Below are positions 50,016-56,020 of a stretch of 64,000 nt of DNA, piece after piece. The number at the start of each line of letters is the position of its first letter. The stretch's first letter is position 1. Position numbers and translations under genes: made by a program. The notes beneath the pieces were generated by a model. That model saw only the letters and a list, made by a program, of their open reading frames with translations, ran no database searches and was not told the DNA's origin. Location: NCBI GenBank assembly GCA_020161505.1, contig JAIUNY010000001.1:124001-188000 (forward strand). The letters run 5' to 3'. The stretch comes from Armatimonadota bacterium (GTDB lineage Bacteria > Armatimonadota > Fimbriimonadia > Fimbriimonadales > Fimbriimonadaceae).

Positions 50016-51656
50016 ATGACGAAATACATTTTTGTTACGGGTGGCGTGGTGAGTTCCATTGGCAAAGGCATTACGAGCGCCAGCCTGGGCCGCCTGCTTC
50101 GGAACCGAGGCTACACGGTCGCTCCCGTCAAGCTTGATCCTTACATCAACGTCGATGCGGGCACGATGAACCCGTACCAGCACGGTGAAGTTTTCGTCAC
50201 CGATGACGGCACAGAAACCGATCTCGACCTCGGCCACTACGAGCGGTTTCTCGATGTCAACTGCTCCAACGCAAGCAGCGTCACCACGGGCAAGGTCTAC
50301 CGGAATGTCATCGAAGCCGAGCGACGCGGCGACTATCTCGGCGGCACGGTGCAGGTCATTCCGCACGTCACCAACGAGATCAAGCGACTCCTGATCGATG
50401 CCGGTCAAAAGGAAGAAGCCGACATTGTGTTGGCTGAAATCGGCGGCACAGTCGGCGATATTGAGTCTCTGCCGTTTCTTGAAGCCATCCGCCAGATTCG
50501 CAAGGAATTCGGCAAAGAAAACACGCTTTTCGTTCACGTCACCCTGGTTCCGACCGTCGGGCCATGGGGCGAAATCAAGACCAAGCCGACCCAGCACAGC
50601 GTCATCAACATGCGCCAAATCGGCATCTCGCCGGACGTTTTGGTCTGCCGCTGCGAAGAGCCGATGCCGGACGATGTGAAGGAAAAGATCAGTCTCTTCT
50701 GCGACGTACCGATCGAAGCCGTGGTGGAGAGTCTGACTGCGGAGACGATTTATGAGGTGCCCCTTATGTACGAAAAGCTCGGACTTGGGAACCTCGTCTG
50801 CGAGCGACTCGGACTGAAAAACGATGGCCTCGACCTCACCGAATGGGAAGAGATCGTCAAGATCTTGAAGGAACCCAAGCACACCTGCCGCATCGGGGTG
50901 GTGGGCAAATACACGAGCAACGGCGACGCTTACAAGAGCATTGGCGAATCGCTGGTTCATGCCGGGATCTCCAACGATGCGCGGGTGAAGATCGAGTGGA
51001 TTGAGAGCGATGTCTTCGAGGGCGAAACCGGCCTGAGCGACGAAAAGGTCGCCGAAATGCTCGATGGGCTGGATGGATTGGTCGTCGCTCCTGGCTTCGG
51101 CACCCGGGGGATCGAAGGCAAAATTCGTGCGCTCAAGTACGTCCGCGAGCAAGGAATTCCGTTCCTGGGCATTTGTCTCGGCTTGCAGATGGCGGTCATT
51201 GAATACGCCCGGAACGTCTGCGGACTCGAAGGCGCAAGCAGCGAGGAATTCGATACCGATAAGTCCAAAACACCCTATCCGGTCGTCCACTTCATCCCAG
51301 ATCAAACCGGGATCACTCACAAGGGCGGCACGATGCGGCTGGGTTCTTATCCTTGCCATCTGACCGCGAACTCACTCGCTCATAAGCTCTATGAAGGCTC
51401 GCCAATCAACGAGCGGCATCGCCACCGATACGAGGTGAACAACGACTACCGCGAACTCCTGATCCAGCACGGATTGATGGTGAGCGGGGTCTCGCCCGAC
51501 TATCGTCTGGTCGAGATGGTGGAGCTGCCCACGCACCCGTTCTTCATTGCCACTCAGGCCCACCCAGAGTTCAAGAGTCGTCCGAATCGCCCGGCTCCGC
51601 TTTTTGCGGGATTGGTCGAGGCGGCCCTCCGGCGGCAGGCTCGGGTTCTGATCTAG
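50016..51656 (+). CDS. pyrG: CTP synthase
   Basis: A 546-aa enzyme converting UTP to CTP with ATP and glutamine. The synthetase domain starts TKYIFVTGGVVSSIGKGITS, with KLDPYINVDAGTMNPYQHGE and EIGGTVGDIESLPFLEAIRQ. The glutaminase domain has the nucleophile Cys in FLGICLGLQMAVIEYARN and His-x-Glu in TQAHPEFKSRP. Normal length and complete. Confidence 0.98.
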   Translation: MTKYIFVTGGVVSSIGKGITSASLGRLLRNRGYTVAPVKLDPYINVDAGTMNPYQHGEVFVTDDGTETDLDLGHYERFLDVNCSNASSVTTGKVYRNVIEAERRGDYLGGTVQVIPHVTNEIKRLLIDAGQKEEADIVLAEIGGTVGDIESLPFLEAIRQIRKEFGKENTLFVHVTLVPTVGPWGEIKTKPTQHSVINMRQIGISPDVLVCRCEEPMPDDVKEKISLFCDVPIEAVVESLTAETIYEVPLMYEKLGLGNLVCERLGLKNDGLDLTEWEEIVKILKEPKHTCRIGVVGKYTSNGDAYKSIGESLVHAGISNDARVKIEWIESDVFEGETGLSDEKVAEMLDGLDGLVVAPGFGTRGIEGKIRALKYVREQGIPFLGICLGLQMAVIEYARNVCGLEGASSEEFDTDKSKTPYPVVHFIPDQTGITHKGGTMRLGSYPCHLTANSLAHKLYEGSPINERHRHRYEVNNDYRELLIQHGLMVSGVSPDYRLVEMVELPTHPFFIATQAHPEFKSRPNRPAPLFAGLVEAALRRQARVLI

Positions 51657-51730
51657 CGGTGTAAGGTCCTGGGGTCGGCTCGCCGGAATCCCCAAGGGCG
51701 AGTGGGGAAAACCTTCATAATTCGAGGGCT

Positions 51731-53053
51731 ATGGACTCCCCCCGCCGCAATTCTGGCCCAGAGGATTTCGATACCTTTAGGCGGCGACTCATTCTCAAAT
51801 CCACTCCTTTGGGGAAGGATGAGCGGGCGGAGTGGTTCGAGGCCTTCTGCAATGTTGTGCAGAAAGCGTTCCCGAACCAAGAGATGCGTTTGAACAAGCC
51901 CGGTGTCGCTCACCGCATGTTTGCCGCTGAGATCTCGGTTCCCAAAATGAAGCCGGGTCAGTTGGTGAACTTCCTCAAGGAGTTCGAGCAGATCTTTGTT
52001 GAGGGAACCCCCGTCACCGTGGAGGCTCTCCACACCACGATTTTCGAAGATCGTCTGGATGCGATTTGGGAATTCGCGATGGATCTGGGAGATGCCTACG
52101 TGACCGGCGCTGTGAAGCTGCGAAACGCTGACTTCGGTCTTTTTGAGTATCTGCCGGACGAGCGACCCGATTTTGAGAATCGTCCCCGCCGACCGGGTGG
52201 CTATGGCGACCGGGATAACCGAGGAGATCGAGGTGGTCGACCAGGCTACGACCGTGGACCCCGTCCCGACCGAGGCGGAGATCGCCCGTGGCAAGATCGC
52301 GGCCCTCGTCCCGGTGGAGATCGTCCTTGGCAAGACCGAGGCCCTCGACCTGGTGGAGATCGTCCGTGGCAAGACCGCGGCCCACGTCCTGGTGGAGATC
52401 GTCCGTGGCAAGATCGTGGCCCACGTCCTGGTGGAGATCGTCCATGGCAGGATCGTGGCCCGCGCCCGGATCGCGGCGGTGATCGCCCGTGGCAAGATCG
52501 CGGCCCTCGTCCGGATCGTGGTGGAGATCGCCCCTGGCAAGACCGAGGCACACGCCCAGATCGCGGTGGAGATCGCCCCTGGCAAGACCGAGGCCCTCGC
52601 CCAGAACGCGGTGGCGATCGCCCCTGGCAAGACCGACGCCCTCGCCCAGATCGCGGTGGCGATCGCCCCTGGCAAGACAGAGGCCCACGTCCAGATCGCG
52701 GTGGAGATCGCCCCTGGCAAGACCGAGGCCCTCGCCCGGATCGCGGTGGAGATCGCCCCTGGCAAGACCGAGGCCCTCGCCCCGATCGTGGTGGTGATCG
52801 CCCTTGGCAAGACCGAGGCCCACGTCCCGGCGGAGATCGCCCGTGGCAAGATCGCGGTGGCGACCGCCCTAGAGGAGACCGCCCTTTCGATAATGATCGC
52901 GGCCCATCTCGCGAATTTCCAGGGTCAGACCGACCTTATCGTCCTCGACCATCGGGCGGAAGACCTCCTTCATCGTATGGAAAAGGCGGTCCGAAATTTG
53001 GCCCAAAAGGTCGTCGGGACGGCCCGCCAAAACGCAAACCGTCAGGTGAATAA
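51731..53053 (+). CDS. Protein with conserved-looking N-domain and 14 tandem RG-rich repeats
   Basis: 440 aa. Residues ~10-150 form a globular, mixed alpha/beta-looking domain I do not recognise ([40 protein letters not shown]). Residues ~182-375 are 14 tandem copies of [13 protein letters not shown], either 13 or 15 residues long (extra DR or ER), predicted disordered and very basic/acidic mixed. The tail is rich in Arg, Gly, Pro and Lys ([19 protein letters not shown]). Such RG/RGG tracts often bind RNA. The last 185 bases overlap the tautomerase gene on the opposite strand. Confidence 0.75.
52274..52855 (+). repeat. Tandem coding repeat, 14 units of 39 or 45 bp
   Basis: Units encode [13 protein letters not shown] with optional DR/ER. 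The order is four 39-bp units, eight 45-bp units, one 39-bp unit and a 27-bp partial. Variation is mostly single-codon (GTRP, RRPRP), so the array expanded recently. It is in frame throughout, which keeps long shadow frames open on both strands. Confidence 0.9.
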
Positions 53054-53231
53054 AGGCGGGCTTCCCACCTTCGCCGGTCAGCCAAACTTCTGAGGGTCGG
53101 GCGTACGCCTTGATCGCGGCCGGGTCAATGGTTTCCTGTGCCGAGAAAACCCGAGTGAGTGCTTCCAGAGCCTGAGAGATCTGTTCGCGGGTCAGGAGGC
53201 CCGTCGGGAGTTCAAGTTGCAGGTGCGGCAT
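52869..53231 (-). CDS. 5-carboxymethyl-2-hydroxymuconate isomerase / tautomerase family protein
   Basis: 120 aa. It starts [12 protein letters not shown] with the catalytic Pro after the initiator Met, as in the MIF/tautomerase superfamily, and has [32 protein letters not shown] and the C-terminal signature [17 protein letters not shown] typical of the HpcD-like group. Substrate unknown; no aromatic degradation genes are nearby. The last 62 codons overlap, antisense, the 3' end of the RG-repeat gene. It is 51 bases downstream of the nucleoside hydrolase on the same strand. Confidence 0.85.
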
Positions 53232-53282
53232 GGCCTATTGTGGCCTGCTCTCGCTTCACTTCGACTCTGCCCTGGTTCGTGC

Positions 53283-54134
53283 TTACCCGTGCATCACTCG
53301 GAAGAAGTGGTCAAAGAACTCGCGCGACTTGATCGTCGCGGCGACTCGGTCGTTCCCCGGCCCGCTTTCGAAGTAGGTGTGGGCATCTTCTGGCGTCGAA
53401 ATCACGCGACCTTGAGCGTAATCGCAGAGATGCGGCTCGAAAATCGCGGCCGCCGCCAGAGGATCATGGAAAACCAGATGCGGCGTGTGGCTGAACCAGT
53501 GCTCCGCCATGCTCGCAACGCACTCCAGAAGATCGCCGGTGAACTGCTGGCGAATTTCATCAGCAGGCAGAGCGCACTGCAGAGTGACATCGAGCCCGAA
53601 CCAGGTGTGCGTGGGGCGCTTGCTCGCGGCAACAATCCCACATGCCGCGGGGTCGCATTTACAATTCCACTCGTGATTCTCGTGACCGAAAAAGGCACCC
53701 GCCATGGAGACAATGTTCTTGAGGAGGAAAGGGATCTCCGGATCGAGAGCAAAGAGCAGGGCAATGTTGCCGAAGGGGCCAATGGTCAGGAGAGTGATTT
53801 CGCCGGGACGGGAGCGAATGGTGTCACGCATAAACTCGACGGCAGAATTGGGCTGACGATCGAGTCGATGAGGAAGGTGGGAGATGGCCTCGTACTGGGC
53901 TGTCCAGGGTTGTCCGGGGCCATGGGCGAGGGCGTCCGATCGTCCGGCCACGATGGGAATATCTTCGCGCCCGGCAATCCGGCAGAGAACTTCCGCGATA
54001 GCCGCGCGTTTGTTCACATCACCGGTCACCGTGGTGATACCGAGCAACTCCGCGCGTGGCTGCCGCAAGAGGTATGCGATGGCAACCGCATCGTCAATAT
54101 CGTTGCCTGGATCGGTATCGAGGAGAATCGGAAC
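53283..54134 (-). CDS. Nucleoside hydrolase (IUNH family) without a canonical start codon
   Basis: Hydrolyses ribonucleosides to base and ribose. From 54134 the frame reads PILLDTDPGNDIDDAVAIAY, the Ca-binding active-site motif, then LLGITTVTGDVNKRAA, PIVAGRSDALAHG, LTIGPFGNIALLFALDP and VFHDPLAAAAIFEP. No ATG, GTG or TTG lies in frame between the stop at 54185-54187 and TTG 54068, and the latter would remove the active site. GTT (54132-54134) is at good spacing from AAGGA. An ATG at 54149-54151 is one frame off. Either a GTT/ATA/ATT start, a frameshift, or a sequence error. About 283 aa. Confidence 0.78.
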   Translation of the reverse strand, partial: VPILLDTDPGNDIDDAVAIAYLLRQPRAELLGITTVTGDVNKRAAIAEVLCRIAGREDIPIVAGRSDALAHGPGQPWTAQYEAISHLPHRLDRQPNSAVEFMRDTIRSRPGEITLLTIGPFGNIALLFALDPEIPFLLKNIVSMAGAFFGHENHEWNCKCDPAACGIVAASKRPTHTWFGLDVTLQCALPADEIRQQFTGDLLECVASMAEHWFSHTPHLVFHDPLAAAAIFEPHLCDYAQGRVISTPEDAHTYFESGPGNDRVAATIKSREFFDHFFRVMHG

Positions 54135-54267
54135 GGTGTCTATCCTTTCATTGTATCCATCGGAGAGAAGGATATGGGTTAAGCCTTAATTCTTGACAAA
54201 AAGAAGTATTTTCTTTGACCCAAGGCCCGGGAGGTGGCGGGGGTAGTTTGATGGGTAGGGGCAACCA

Positions 54268-55365
54268 GTGGAACGAACAGAGAGACCAATTCGCGTCGGA
54301 ATTCTTACCGCCGGCGGTGACTGCGCCGGACTCAATGCAGTCATCGCCGCAGCCGTCAAGTACGGCACGACTCTCGGCTACGAGTTCATTGGGTTCAGAA
54401 GGGGGTACGAAGGGGTGCTCTCTCCCACCGATACGTTGGAGCTGACTCCGGACACCGTCCGCGGAATCAGCCATCTCGGCGGCACAATCCTACATTCCAC
54501 CAACCATGGTCGGTTCGGCGCCAAAAAAGGGGAAGGCGAAGTGGCACGGATCCCCGACGAAGTTCTTCAGGAAGCCAAGTCAAATCTGGAAAGCCTGGGC
54601 ATTGATTGGCTCATTGTCATCGGAGGGGATGGAAGCCTGAGCGGGGCCCTCCAGCTTTCGGAAATCGGCGTGAACGTCGTAGGCGTTCCGAAGACGATTG
54701 ACAACGATCTTGCCGCGACGGATCAAACCTTTGGTTTCAGCACCGCGCTGAGCGTCGCGGTCGATGCGATGGATCGGGTTCACACCACGGCAACGAGCCA
54801 CGACCGCGTGCTGTTCGTGGAAGTGATGGGCCGAAACACGGGCTGGATTGCCCTCAAAGCGGGCTTGGCCGGGGGAGCGTCGGCGATTCTCGTGCCGGAG
54901 TTCCCGTTCCACATCGAAGATCTGGTTGAATTTTTGCGGGAGCGCAAGCACCAGCCGACAACGTCCGCCATCGTGATGGTGGCAGAAGGGGCCATTGTTG
55001 AAGGCGGTCGGGTCTCTGACGGGGTGATCGCCGGTGGCGAGACGCATTACGGGGGCGTCTCGAACCAGCTTGTGCGGATGATCGAAGCCATGGCTCCCGG
55101 CGAATTTGAAATGCGCGCCACGATCTTGGGGCACATGCAGCGGGGAGGCACCCCGAATGCTCGAGATCGCAACTTGGCTCGAGCTTACGGAGTGGCTGCG
55201 ATCGATGCAATTTTGGAAAACCAAGCTCGAACCATGGTGAGTTTGCGAGACAACGATATCCTGCTGGTGCCTCTGGACGAAGCCGTGAGCAAGTTGAAGA
55301 CGGTCGGCCCAGATACCCTGGAATACCGCACCGCGCGCAAACTCGGAGTGTTTATCCACGCCTAA
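54268..55365 (+). CDS. pfkA: 6-phosphofructokinase
   Basis: A 365-aa glycolytic kinase. It starts with GTG 54268 (RPIRVGILTAGGDCAGLNAV). The nucleotide site is IGGDGSLSGALQLSE, with Gly at the position that distinguishes ATP-PFK from PPi-PFK, but the substrate loop reads VPKTIDNDLAATD, with Lys where E. coli PFK has Gly. That G/K pair marks the mixed (group III) PFKs. Other motifs are FVEVMGRNTGWIA and ATILGHMQRGGTPNARDR. ATP use is likely but not certain. Confidence 0.94.
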   Translation: MERTERPIRVGILTAGGDCAGLNAVIAAAVKYGTTLGYEFIGFRRGYEGVLSPTDTLELTPDTVRGISHLGGTILHSTNHGRFGAKKGEGEVARIPDEVLQEAKSNLESLGIDWLIVIGGDGSLSGALQLSEIGVNVVGVPKTIDNDLAATDQTFGFSTALSVAVDAMDRVHTTATSHDRVLFVEVMGRNTGWIALKAGLAGGASAILVPEFPFHIEDLVEFLRERKHQPTTSAIVMVAEGAIVEGGRVSDGVIAGGETHYGGVSNQLVRMIEAMAPGEFEMRATILGHMQRGGTPNARDRNLARAYGVAAIDAILENQARTMVSLRDNDILLVPLDEAVSKLKTVGPDTLEYRTARKLGVFIHA

Positions 55366-55425: not shown

Positions 55426-55431
55426 TATAAT
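55426..55431 (+). promoter_or_regulatory. Putative -10 box of the RRM gene
   Basis: TATAAT, overlapping an ATG (55430) that opens a longer reading frame. If this is the -10, transcription begins near 55438 and that ATG cannot be the start; translation would begin at TTG 55568 after a leader of about 130 bases. Confidence 0.5.
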
Positions 55432-55536
55432 GAGTACGCAAGTTTTCCGCTCTCCTGAATTAGCCGAGATTCCGCTCCGAAAGACAGCGCCCGAACCCCA
55501 GCTCACGAAGAAAGATATCCGAAAACGCGCACGACT

Positions 55537-55550
55537 GGCGGCATGCCGCC
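55537..55550 (+). promoter_or_regulatory. Palindrome in the RRM gene leader
   Basis: GGCGGCATGCCGCC is a perfect 14-bp palindrome directly before GGAG (55553-55556) and the TTG start (55568). As RNA it could form a short hairpin or dimerise at the ribosome-binding site, a plausible control site for an RNA-binding protein gene. Confidence 0.4.
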
Positions 55551-55567
55551 TTGGAGCAATTAAGAAA

Positions 55568-56020
55568 TTGGCTACGAAATCTCTCTACGTGGGAAATCTG
55601 TCTTACTCGACGAGTGAGCAGGGTTTGTTGGACGCATTCAGCGCTTTTGGCGCTTCTAAGGCCCGAGTGGTCGAAGGTCGCGGCTTCGGATTCATTGATG
55701 TTGAAGAAGAGCACATGGACGCCGCAATCGAGGCGATGAACGGTAAGGAAATCGACGGTCGCAAGGTTGTCGTGAACGAGGCTCGTCCTCGTCCTGAGCG
55801 CCCGAGCTACGGCGGTGGCGGCGGCGGTGGCGGAAGCTACGGCGGCGGCGGTGGTCGCAGCGGTGGCGGCGGCTACGGCGGTGGCGGCGGTGGTTACGGC
55901 GGCGGTGGCGGCGGTGGCGGCGGCGGTGGCTACGGCGGCGGTCGAAGCGGCGGCGGTGGTGGCGGTCGCGGTGGCCGTGATCGCGGCGGTCGCGGTGGCG
56001 GCGGCGGCGATCGCTGGTAA
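55568..56020 (+). CDS. Glycine-rich RNA-binding protein with one RRM domain
   Basis: 150 aa from TTG. The RRM runs from residue ~4 to 80: RNP2 is SLYVGNLSY and RNP1 is GRGFGFIDV, followed by AIEAMNGKEIDGRKVVVNEA. The tail (about 70 residues) is nearly all Gly with Tyr, Arg and Ser, like cyanobacterial Rbp proteins, which respond to cold. A longer frame starts at ATG 55430, but that ATG overlaps a TATAAT box and the extra 46 residues are not part of the family. GGAG at 55553 supports TTG 55568. Downstream is a strong terminator. Confidence 0.85.
   Translation: MATKSLYVGNLSYSTSEQGLLDAFSAFGASKARVVEGRGFGFIDVEEEHMDAAIEAMNGKEIDGRKVVVNEARPRPERPSYGGGGGGGGSYGGGGGRSGGGGYGGGGGGYGGGGGGGGGGGYGGGRSGGGGGGRGGRDRGGRGGGGGDRW

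What the first reader, a model, noticed from the sequence alone, without database searches (positions are those of the whole stretch)
52869..53053. 185-bp antisense overlap between the RG-repeat gene and a tautomerase gene
The last 61 codons of the RG-repeat protein and the last 62 codons (with stop) of a recognisable HpcD-like tautomerase share the same DNA on opposite strands. First codon positions face each other in this phase. The conserved tautomerase end ([12 protein letters not shown]) constrains the other strand, so the RG protein tail may have been created by overprinting after loss of an earlier stop.
Basis: partly seen in the sequence, partly recalled or inferred. Interest (0 to 1): 0.6.

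Follow-up and report, generated by a model that had tools for sequence, protein, structure and literature searches.

The report
Two bacterial genes sharing opposite strands
In a family of environmental bacteria, the tail end of an arginine-glycine-rich protein gene and the tail end of an enzyme gene are written into the same ~180 bases on opposite DNA strands, and comparison of related species shows that evolution has kept both messages readable across several genera.

Summary
In detail: an RG-repeat gene (51731..53053, +) and a CHMI-family tautomerase (52869..53231, -) share 185 bp tail to tail, with first codon positions facing. It is not chance or misannotation. The genome is a Fimbriimonadaceae (Armatimonadota). 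The overlap is kept in 11 species of six genera (164-209 bp where measurable), all in one phase. In this phase every tautomerase wobble base is the middle base of an RG codon. Synonymous change in the tautomerase is suppressed inside the overlap (pooled odds ratio 0.32, p 2.8e-6) but not in controls (1.04). Synonymous shuffling of the tautomerase hardly ever reproduces the tail's lysine content (P <= 0.004 in all 11). A stop that ends this frame in 23 of 40 tautomerases without an RG neighbour is avoided in 11 of 11. So both C-termini look selected as protein. A deep, well-tested example of a known kind, the long convergent overlap. Translation itself is not measured. Interest 0.5.

The parts
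51731..53053 (+). RG-repeat protein gene, 440 aa: N-terminal domain (~1-150), [15 protein letters not shown]-type repeats, basic C-terminal tail
   Evidence: N-domain relatives in 23 of 113 genomes of the order, no Pfam or NCBIfam match
51731..52172 (+). conserved N-terminal domain of the RG protein, alpha/beta fold
   Evidence: AlphaFold2 pLDDT 88, pTM 0.82; weak resemblance to nucleotidyltransferase palm folds, Z up to 9
52196..52868 (+). RG repeat array, not overlapped by the tautomerase
   Evidence: sequence and translation
52869..53053 (.). double-coding segment, 185 bp, phase 123:132 (first positions face each other)
   Evidence: dual constraint
52871..53053 (+). RG C-terminal tail (60 residues, ...[18 protein letters not shown]) and its TAA stop
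53051..53053 (+). RG stop TAA, made by the tautomerase F|I junction (TT|A on the minus strand); same place in 7 of 11 overlapping relatives
52925..52927 (+). RG Ser codon TCA opposite the tautomerase L|T junction; a stop here in 23 of 40 tautomerases without RG neighbour, Ser in 11 of 11 overlaps
   Evidence: sequence
52869..53231 (-). tautomerase gene of the CHMI family, 120 aa, Pro after the start Met
   Evidence: Pfam CHMI E 6.7e-14; PDB 4jcu E 2.4e-5; alignment

Best explanation
A genuine, long-conserved convergent (tail-to-tail) gene overlap in which the same ~180 bp encode the C-terminal half of a CHMI-type tautomerase and the basic C-terminal tail of a Fimbriimonadaceae RG-repeat protein. 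It works through phase 123:132. The tautomerase amino acids largely fix positions 1 and 3 of every RG codon, and each tautomerase wobble base is the middle base of an RG codon, so each RG residue is one of about four choices made with tautomerase synonymous codons. Selection has used that freedom to write a Gly/Pro/Lys/Arg/Ser tail, to avoid stops, and to let RG translation end around the conserved tautomerase FIHLT strand. Shown: sequence, conservation, signs of selection on both strands. Inferred: that both proteins are made, and that the basic tail acts in nucleic-acid binding or another disordered-tail role. The overlap may persist partly because it is hard to undo without damaging one protein.
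For: Long overlap in one phase in G000, G002, G003, G004, G008, G014, G022, G085, G086, G097 (43-free; for lengths) and in G092 across a contig break. Third-position differences G002 vs G004: tautomerase 23/60 outside vs 1/58 inside; RG 130/431 outside vs 2/59 in the tail. Five independent pairs pooled: odds ratio 0.32, p 2.8e-6; nine control pairs 1.04, p 0.78. Synonymous shuffles of each tautomerase: Lys 3-11 observed vs 0.2-1.6 expected, P <= 0.004 in all 11; Ala+Thr below expectation in all 11 (P < 0.05 in 10), hydrophobics low in most. Tails resemble non-overlapping RG tails better than any of 400 shuffles in 9 of 9 genomes tested. Column-locked comparison: stop 23/40 vs Ser 11/11; Lys 10/11 opposite the conserved Cys.
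Against: No expression, ribosome-profiling or proteomic data. Suppression is strong in two pairs (G002/G004, G022/G092), marginal in G000/G003 and weak in G085/G086 and G014/G097. Per-genome openness by chance is 0.03-0.49, so openness alone proves little. Codon usage for the shuffles came from pyrG and rpoB or pyrG alone, which may be atypical. Tail composition is low complexity, so motif resemblance can converge. The column comparison was explored after the alignment was seen.
Confidence: 0.87

Rival explanations
1. The RG tail is a neutral readthrough extension: the RG stop was lost and the frame runs through the antisense of the tautomerase until the first stop, with no selection on the tail.
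For: The RG stop position is largely set by conserved tautomerase codons, so a passive extension would end at about the same place. Antisense of a GC3-rich gene in this phase is Pro/Arg/Gly/Ser-rich anyway (expectations).
Against: Lys excess, Ala/Thr and hydrophobic depletion, stop avoidance and synonymous-site suppression.
Confidence: 0.04
2. One reading: the overlap was gained (once or several times) within the RG clade by loss of an upstream stop, and the tail was then shaped from antisense sequence to resemble the older native tail. (This concerns origin and is compatible with present-day double coding.)
For: Non-overlapping relatives with a basic tail ending a few bases before the tautomerase end exist (G005, G007, G023; 4-bp overlap in G010/G093). 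Stop-codon mutation is reported as the likely main source of convergent overlaps (PMC2174442). The two-rate model leaves the root undecided (0.52).
Against: Equal-rate model favours an overlapping root (0.81); loss-only fits better than gain-only (lnL -10.9 vs -12.9); repeated gains must hit one phase and avoid stops each time.
Confidence: 0.35
3. The low synonymous divergence reflects an RNA or DNA element (shared terminator, antisense RNA pairing) in the overlap rather than the RG protein.
For: Convergent transcripts probably overlap here; the only intrinsic-terminator-like match in 51500..54400 is on the minus strand at 53340..53323, fewer than shuffles give.
Against: The signal has protein grammar: Lys codons in the RG frame, stops avoided in that frame, and tails resembling non-overlapping RG tails.
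Confidence: 0.05

Closest known systems
Long convergent gene overlaps in prokaryotes (surveyed in PMC2478687, BMC Genomics 2008, and PMC2174442, Biol Direct 2007)
   Same: Tail-to-tail orientation; phase 123:132 is the commonest for convergent overlaps of 5 bp or more (49%, PMC2174442). PMC2478687 found that among overlaps over 60 bp only convergent ones (54 of 178) might be real.
   Different: Well over the 60-bp limit, shared by at least 11 species in six genera with tests of selection on both strands, and one partner ends in a low-complexity basic tail rather than a folded domain.
Antisense overlapping genes of E. coli O157:H7, e.g. pop antisense to ompA (PMC7103648) and others (PMC9927249)
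   Same: Two proteins from opposite strands of one stretch.
   Different: Those are new ORFs antisense to annotated genes and supported by expression data (abstracts); here two genes with their own relatives overlap only at their 3' ends, and support is evolutionary, without expression data.
CHMI / HpcD (5-carboxymethyl-2-hydroxymuconate isomerase), Pfam PF02962
   Same: Sequence family of the minus-strand partner, with Pro after Met1 and a conserved C-terminal stretch.
   Different: Far below the NCBIfam HpcD equivalog cut-off (20.5 vs 215 bits), so the substrate is unknown.

Membership tests
Real long convergent overlap (test of PMC2478687: gene lengths agree with orthologues) | Both genes keep the length of their orthologues; no 3' extension by frameshift or stop mutation in one genome | tested here: met
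   RG stop at nearly the same place in 11 species; linked tautomerases 111-128 aa with or without overlap
Real long convergent overlap (test of PMC2478687: gene lengths agree with orthologues) | Overlap conserved between species | tested here: met
   11 species, six genera; absent or short in G005, G006, G007, G010, G023, G093, G094
Functional double-coding region | Synonymous-site constraint inside but not outside the overlap | tested here: met
   odds ratio 0.32, p 2.8e-6; controls 1.04
Functional double-coding region | Both products translated | not testable with these tools
   needs ribosome profiling or proteomics
Recent overprinting (de novo tail) | Tail confined to one lineage and unlike orthologues without overlap | tested here: not met
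   six genera; similar tails in non-overlapping RG proteins
CHMI family (PF02962) | Pfam gathering score | tested here: met
   52.8 bits vs 26.5
HpcD equivalog (NF011605) | NCBIfam equivalog cut-off | tested here: not met
   20.5 vs 215 bits
Nucleotidyltransferase-fold proteins (RG N-domain) | Fold similarity | tested here: inconclusive
   VIA Z up to 9.0, Foldseek E 1.8e-3 at best, low sequence identity; middling Z is common

The most novel reading that the evidence does not exclude
An overlap about as old as the RG gene itself, in which the enzyme gene's synonymous codons are the writing medium for a second protein's functional basic tail, held through the history of several genera and tying the two genes together; the five RG genomes not linked to a tautomerase (G011, G017, G032, G083, G084) show no tautomerase at all.
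Probability: 0.35. Interest if true: 0.65.

Novelty: new member of a known kind. Interest (0 to 1): 0.5.

Why it matters
Long antisense overlaps are often dismissed as annotation errors. This one passes comparative tests on both strands across several genera, with natural controls: close relatives without overlap, and tautomerases without the partner. It shows how a low-complexity basic tail can be written in the wobble bases of an enzyme gene, and it offers a clean set of species for studying how overlaps arise and dissolve.

Tried and rejected
Duplication as the way out of overlap: antisense of the G023 and G005 tails does not read like a tautomerase, but such a trace would fade fast, so this is undecided rather than excluded. 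Replacement of the tautomerase in G010/G093: suggested by the FAHLEVAVL motif and a small tree, not upheld with 58 sequences (one clade of all linked tautomerases not rejected, p-AU 0.485). A profile search for named relatives with the 12-row alignment failed for lack of conserved stretches and was replaced by a genus alignment. G006's apparent 25-bp overlap was set aside: its expected RG tail KKGGPPKRRD lies in another frame, so its RG gene carries a frameshift in the repeats. Possible remnants of an older C-terminus just before the junction (RPPRR in G014 and G085, GPPKK in G008) were seen by eye but may be repeat-derived; not counted as evidence. G010/G093 also show lower synonymous divergence in the tautomerase 3' half without a long overlap (0.19 vs 0.49); the pair is kept in the control set.

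Full report
What is there. After pyrG comes an RG-repeat gene, 51731..53053 (+), and facing it a tautomerase gene, 52869..53231 (-). They share 185 bp. Each strand has 61 complete codons in the shared part, stop included, plus two bases of a 62nd. First codon positions face each other; RG position 2 faces tautomerase position 3 and RG position 3 faces tautomerase position 2. The tautomerase belongs to Pfam CHMI (E 6.7e-14) but is far below the HpcD equivalog cut-off. The RG protein matches no family; its N-terminal domain is found in 23 of 113 genomes of the order, all in one family.

Conservation. Of the 23 genomes, 17 have the tautomerase next to the RG gene in one contig, and G092 has it across a contig break, where contig C38 carries the RG repeats and tail. 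Eleven of these 18 have a long overlap: 164-209 bp in the ten where it can be measured directly, and 61 open codons in G092; always in the same phase. The rest do not: G005 and G007 (9 bp apart), G023 (7 bp apart), G094 (65 bp apart), G010 and G093 (4 bp overlap), G006 (25 bp through a frameshift in the repeats). The five RG genomes without a neighbouring tautomerase (G011, G017, G032, G083, G084) have no tautomerase match at all. The upstream neighbour pyrG recurs in many, and an AI-2E-type transporter follows the tautomerase in others (the transporter name rests on my own reading of its sequence, not on a search).

Chance and null. In this phase the antisense frame of a GC-rich gene tends to be open and rich in Pro, Arg, Gly and Ser, so openness alone is weak: 5 of 40 family tautomerases without RG neighbour stay open for 53 codons or more, and shuffles of the linked tautomerases stay open as far as observed with probability 0.03-0.49. 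What shuffles do not reproduce is the make-up of the tail. Lysine is 3-11 observed against 0.2-1.6 expected, at P <= 0.004 in all 11 genomes; Ala+Thr are below expectation in all 11 (P < 0.05 in 10), hydrophobic residues in most. The last 30 residues resemble tails of non-overlapping RG proteins better than any of 400 shuffles in each of nine genomes tested.

Column view. With RG codons locked to the tautomerase alignment, the site opposite the conserved T of TLE is a stop in 23 of 40 unlinked tautomerases and Ser in 11 of 11 overlaps; in the window the tautomerase uses CTG rather than CTC before that Thr, giving TCA instead of TGA on the other strand. Opposite the conserved Cys of the HLTVCVL strand the RG residue is Lys in 10 of 11. 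Seven overlapping RG genes stop opposite the F|I junction, G008 and G014 a little earlier at L|T, and G022 and G092 a few codons further on.

Synonymous constraint. Between G002 and G004 the tautomerase has 23 third-position differences in 60 codons outside the overlap and 1 in 58 inside; the RG gene has 130 in 431 outside and 2 in 59 in the tail. Over five independent pairs the pooled odds ratio for a synonymous difference inside vs outside is 0.32 (p 2.8e-6); over nine control pairs 1.04 (p 0.78). Two pairs carry most of the signal; the more divergent pairs are probably near saturation.

History. On a pyrG+rpoB tree overlap and non-overlap are interleaved: at least four changes, or three if G005, G006 and G007 are one clade, which is not rejected (p-AU 0.234). 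An overlapping root of the RG clade has P 0.81 with equal rates and 0.52 with two rates; loss-only fits better than gain-only. Tautomerase trees are too poorly resolved to help. So the direction is open, with a lean to an old overlap resolved several times. How a lineage leaves the overlap while keeping a similar basic tail is not explained.

How it most likely works. The tautomerase residues largely fix RG positions 1 and 3; the wobble base of each tautomerase codon chooses the RG residue among about four (for example GNC gives V, A, D or G). Selection has kept choices that yield a Gly/Pro/Lys/Arg/Ser tail and no stop. That the tail binds nucleic acid is inferred from composition only. The N-domain model (pLDDT 88) weakly resembles nucleotidyltransferase palm folds (Z up to 9); no function is claimed from this.

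Known background. PMC2478687 found that among overlaps over 60 bp only convergent ones might be real (54 of 178). PMC2174442 found phase 123:132 the commonest for convergent overlaps of 5 bp or more and stop-codon mutation the likely main source. A search for Fimbriimonas together with overlapping genes found no paper in the held library. The finding fits this kind and is a deep, well-tested member of it.

Noticed in passing
L072 (G006), RG gene: Frameshift inside the RG repeats of G006; the expected tail KKGGPPKRRD lies in another frame. Real mutation or sequencing error not decided.
   Followed up: partly
G011, G017, G032, G083, G084: RG genomes without a neighbouring tautomerase have no tautomerase match anywhere in the genome; two of them are under 90% complete.
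   Followed up: no
window 51731..52172: N-terminal domain of the RG protein: family-restricted, no Pfam match, confident alpha/beta model with weak similarity to nucleotidyltransferase palm and RsfS/MALSU1 folds.
   Followed up: partly
window 55430..56020: A second glycine-rich protein close by, with an RRM domain (Pfam RRM_1 E 6.5e-14) and a Gly/Tyr/Arg-rich C-terminal half.
   Followed up: no
window 52143..53093 (+) and 51653..52849 (-): The RG repeat array leaves long open frames in other frames (316 and 398 codons); taken as by-products of the repeat composition.
   Followed up: no
L082 and L083 (G010/G093), tautomerase: Synonymous divergence is lower in the 3' half than the 5' half (0.19 vs 0.49) although the overlap is only 4 bp; unexplained.
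   Followed up: no
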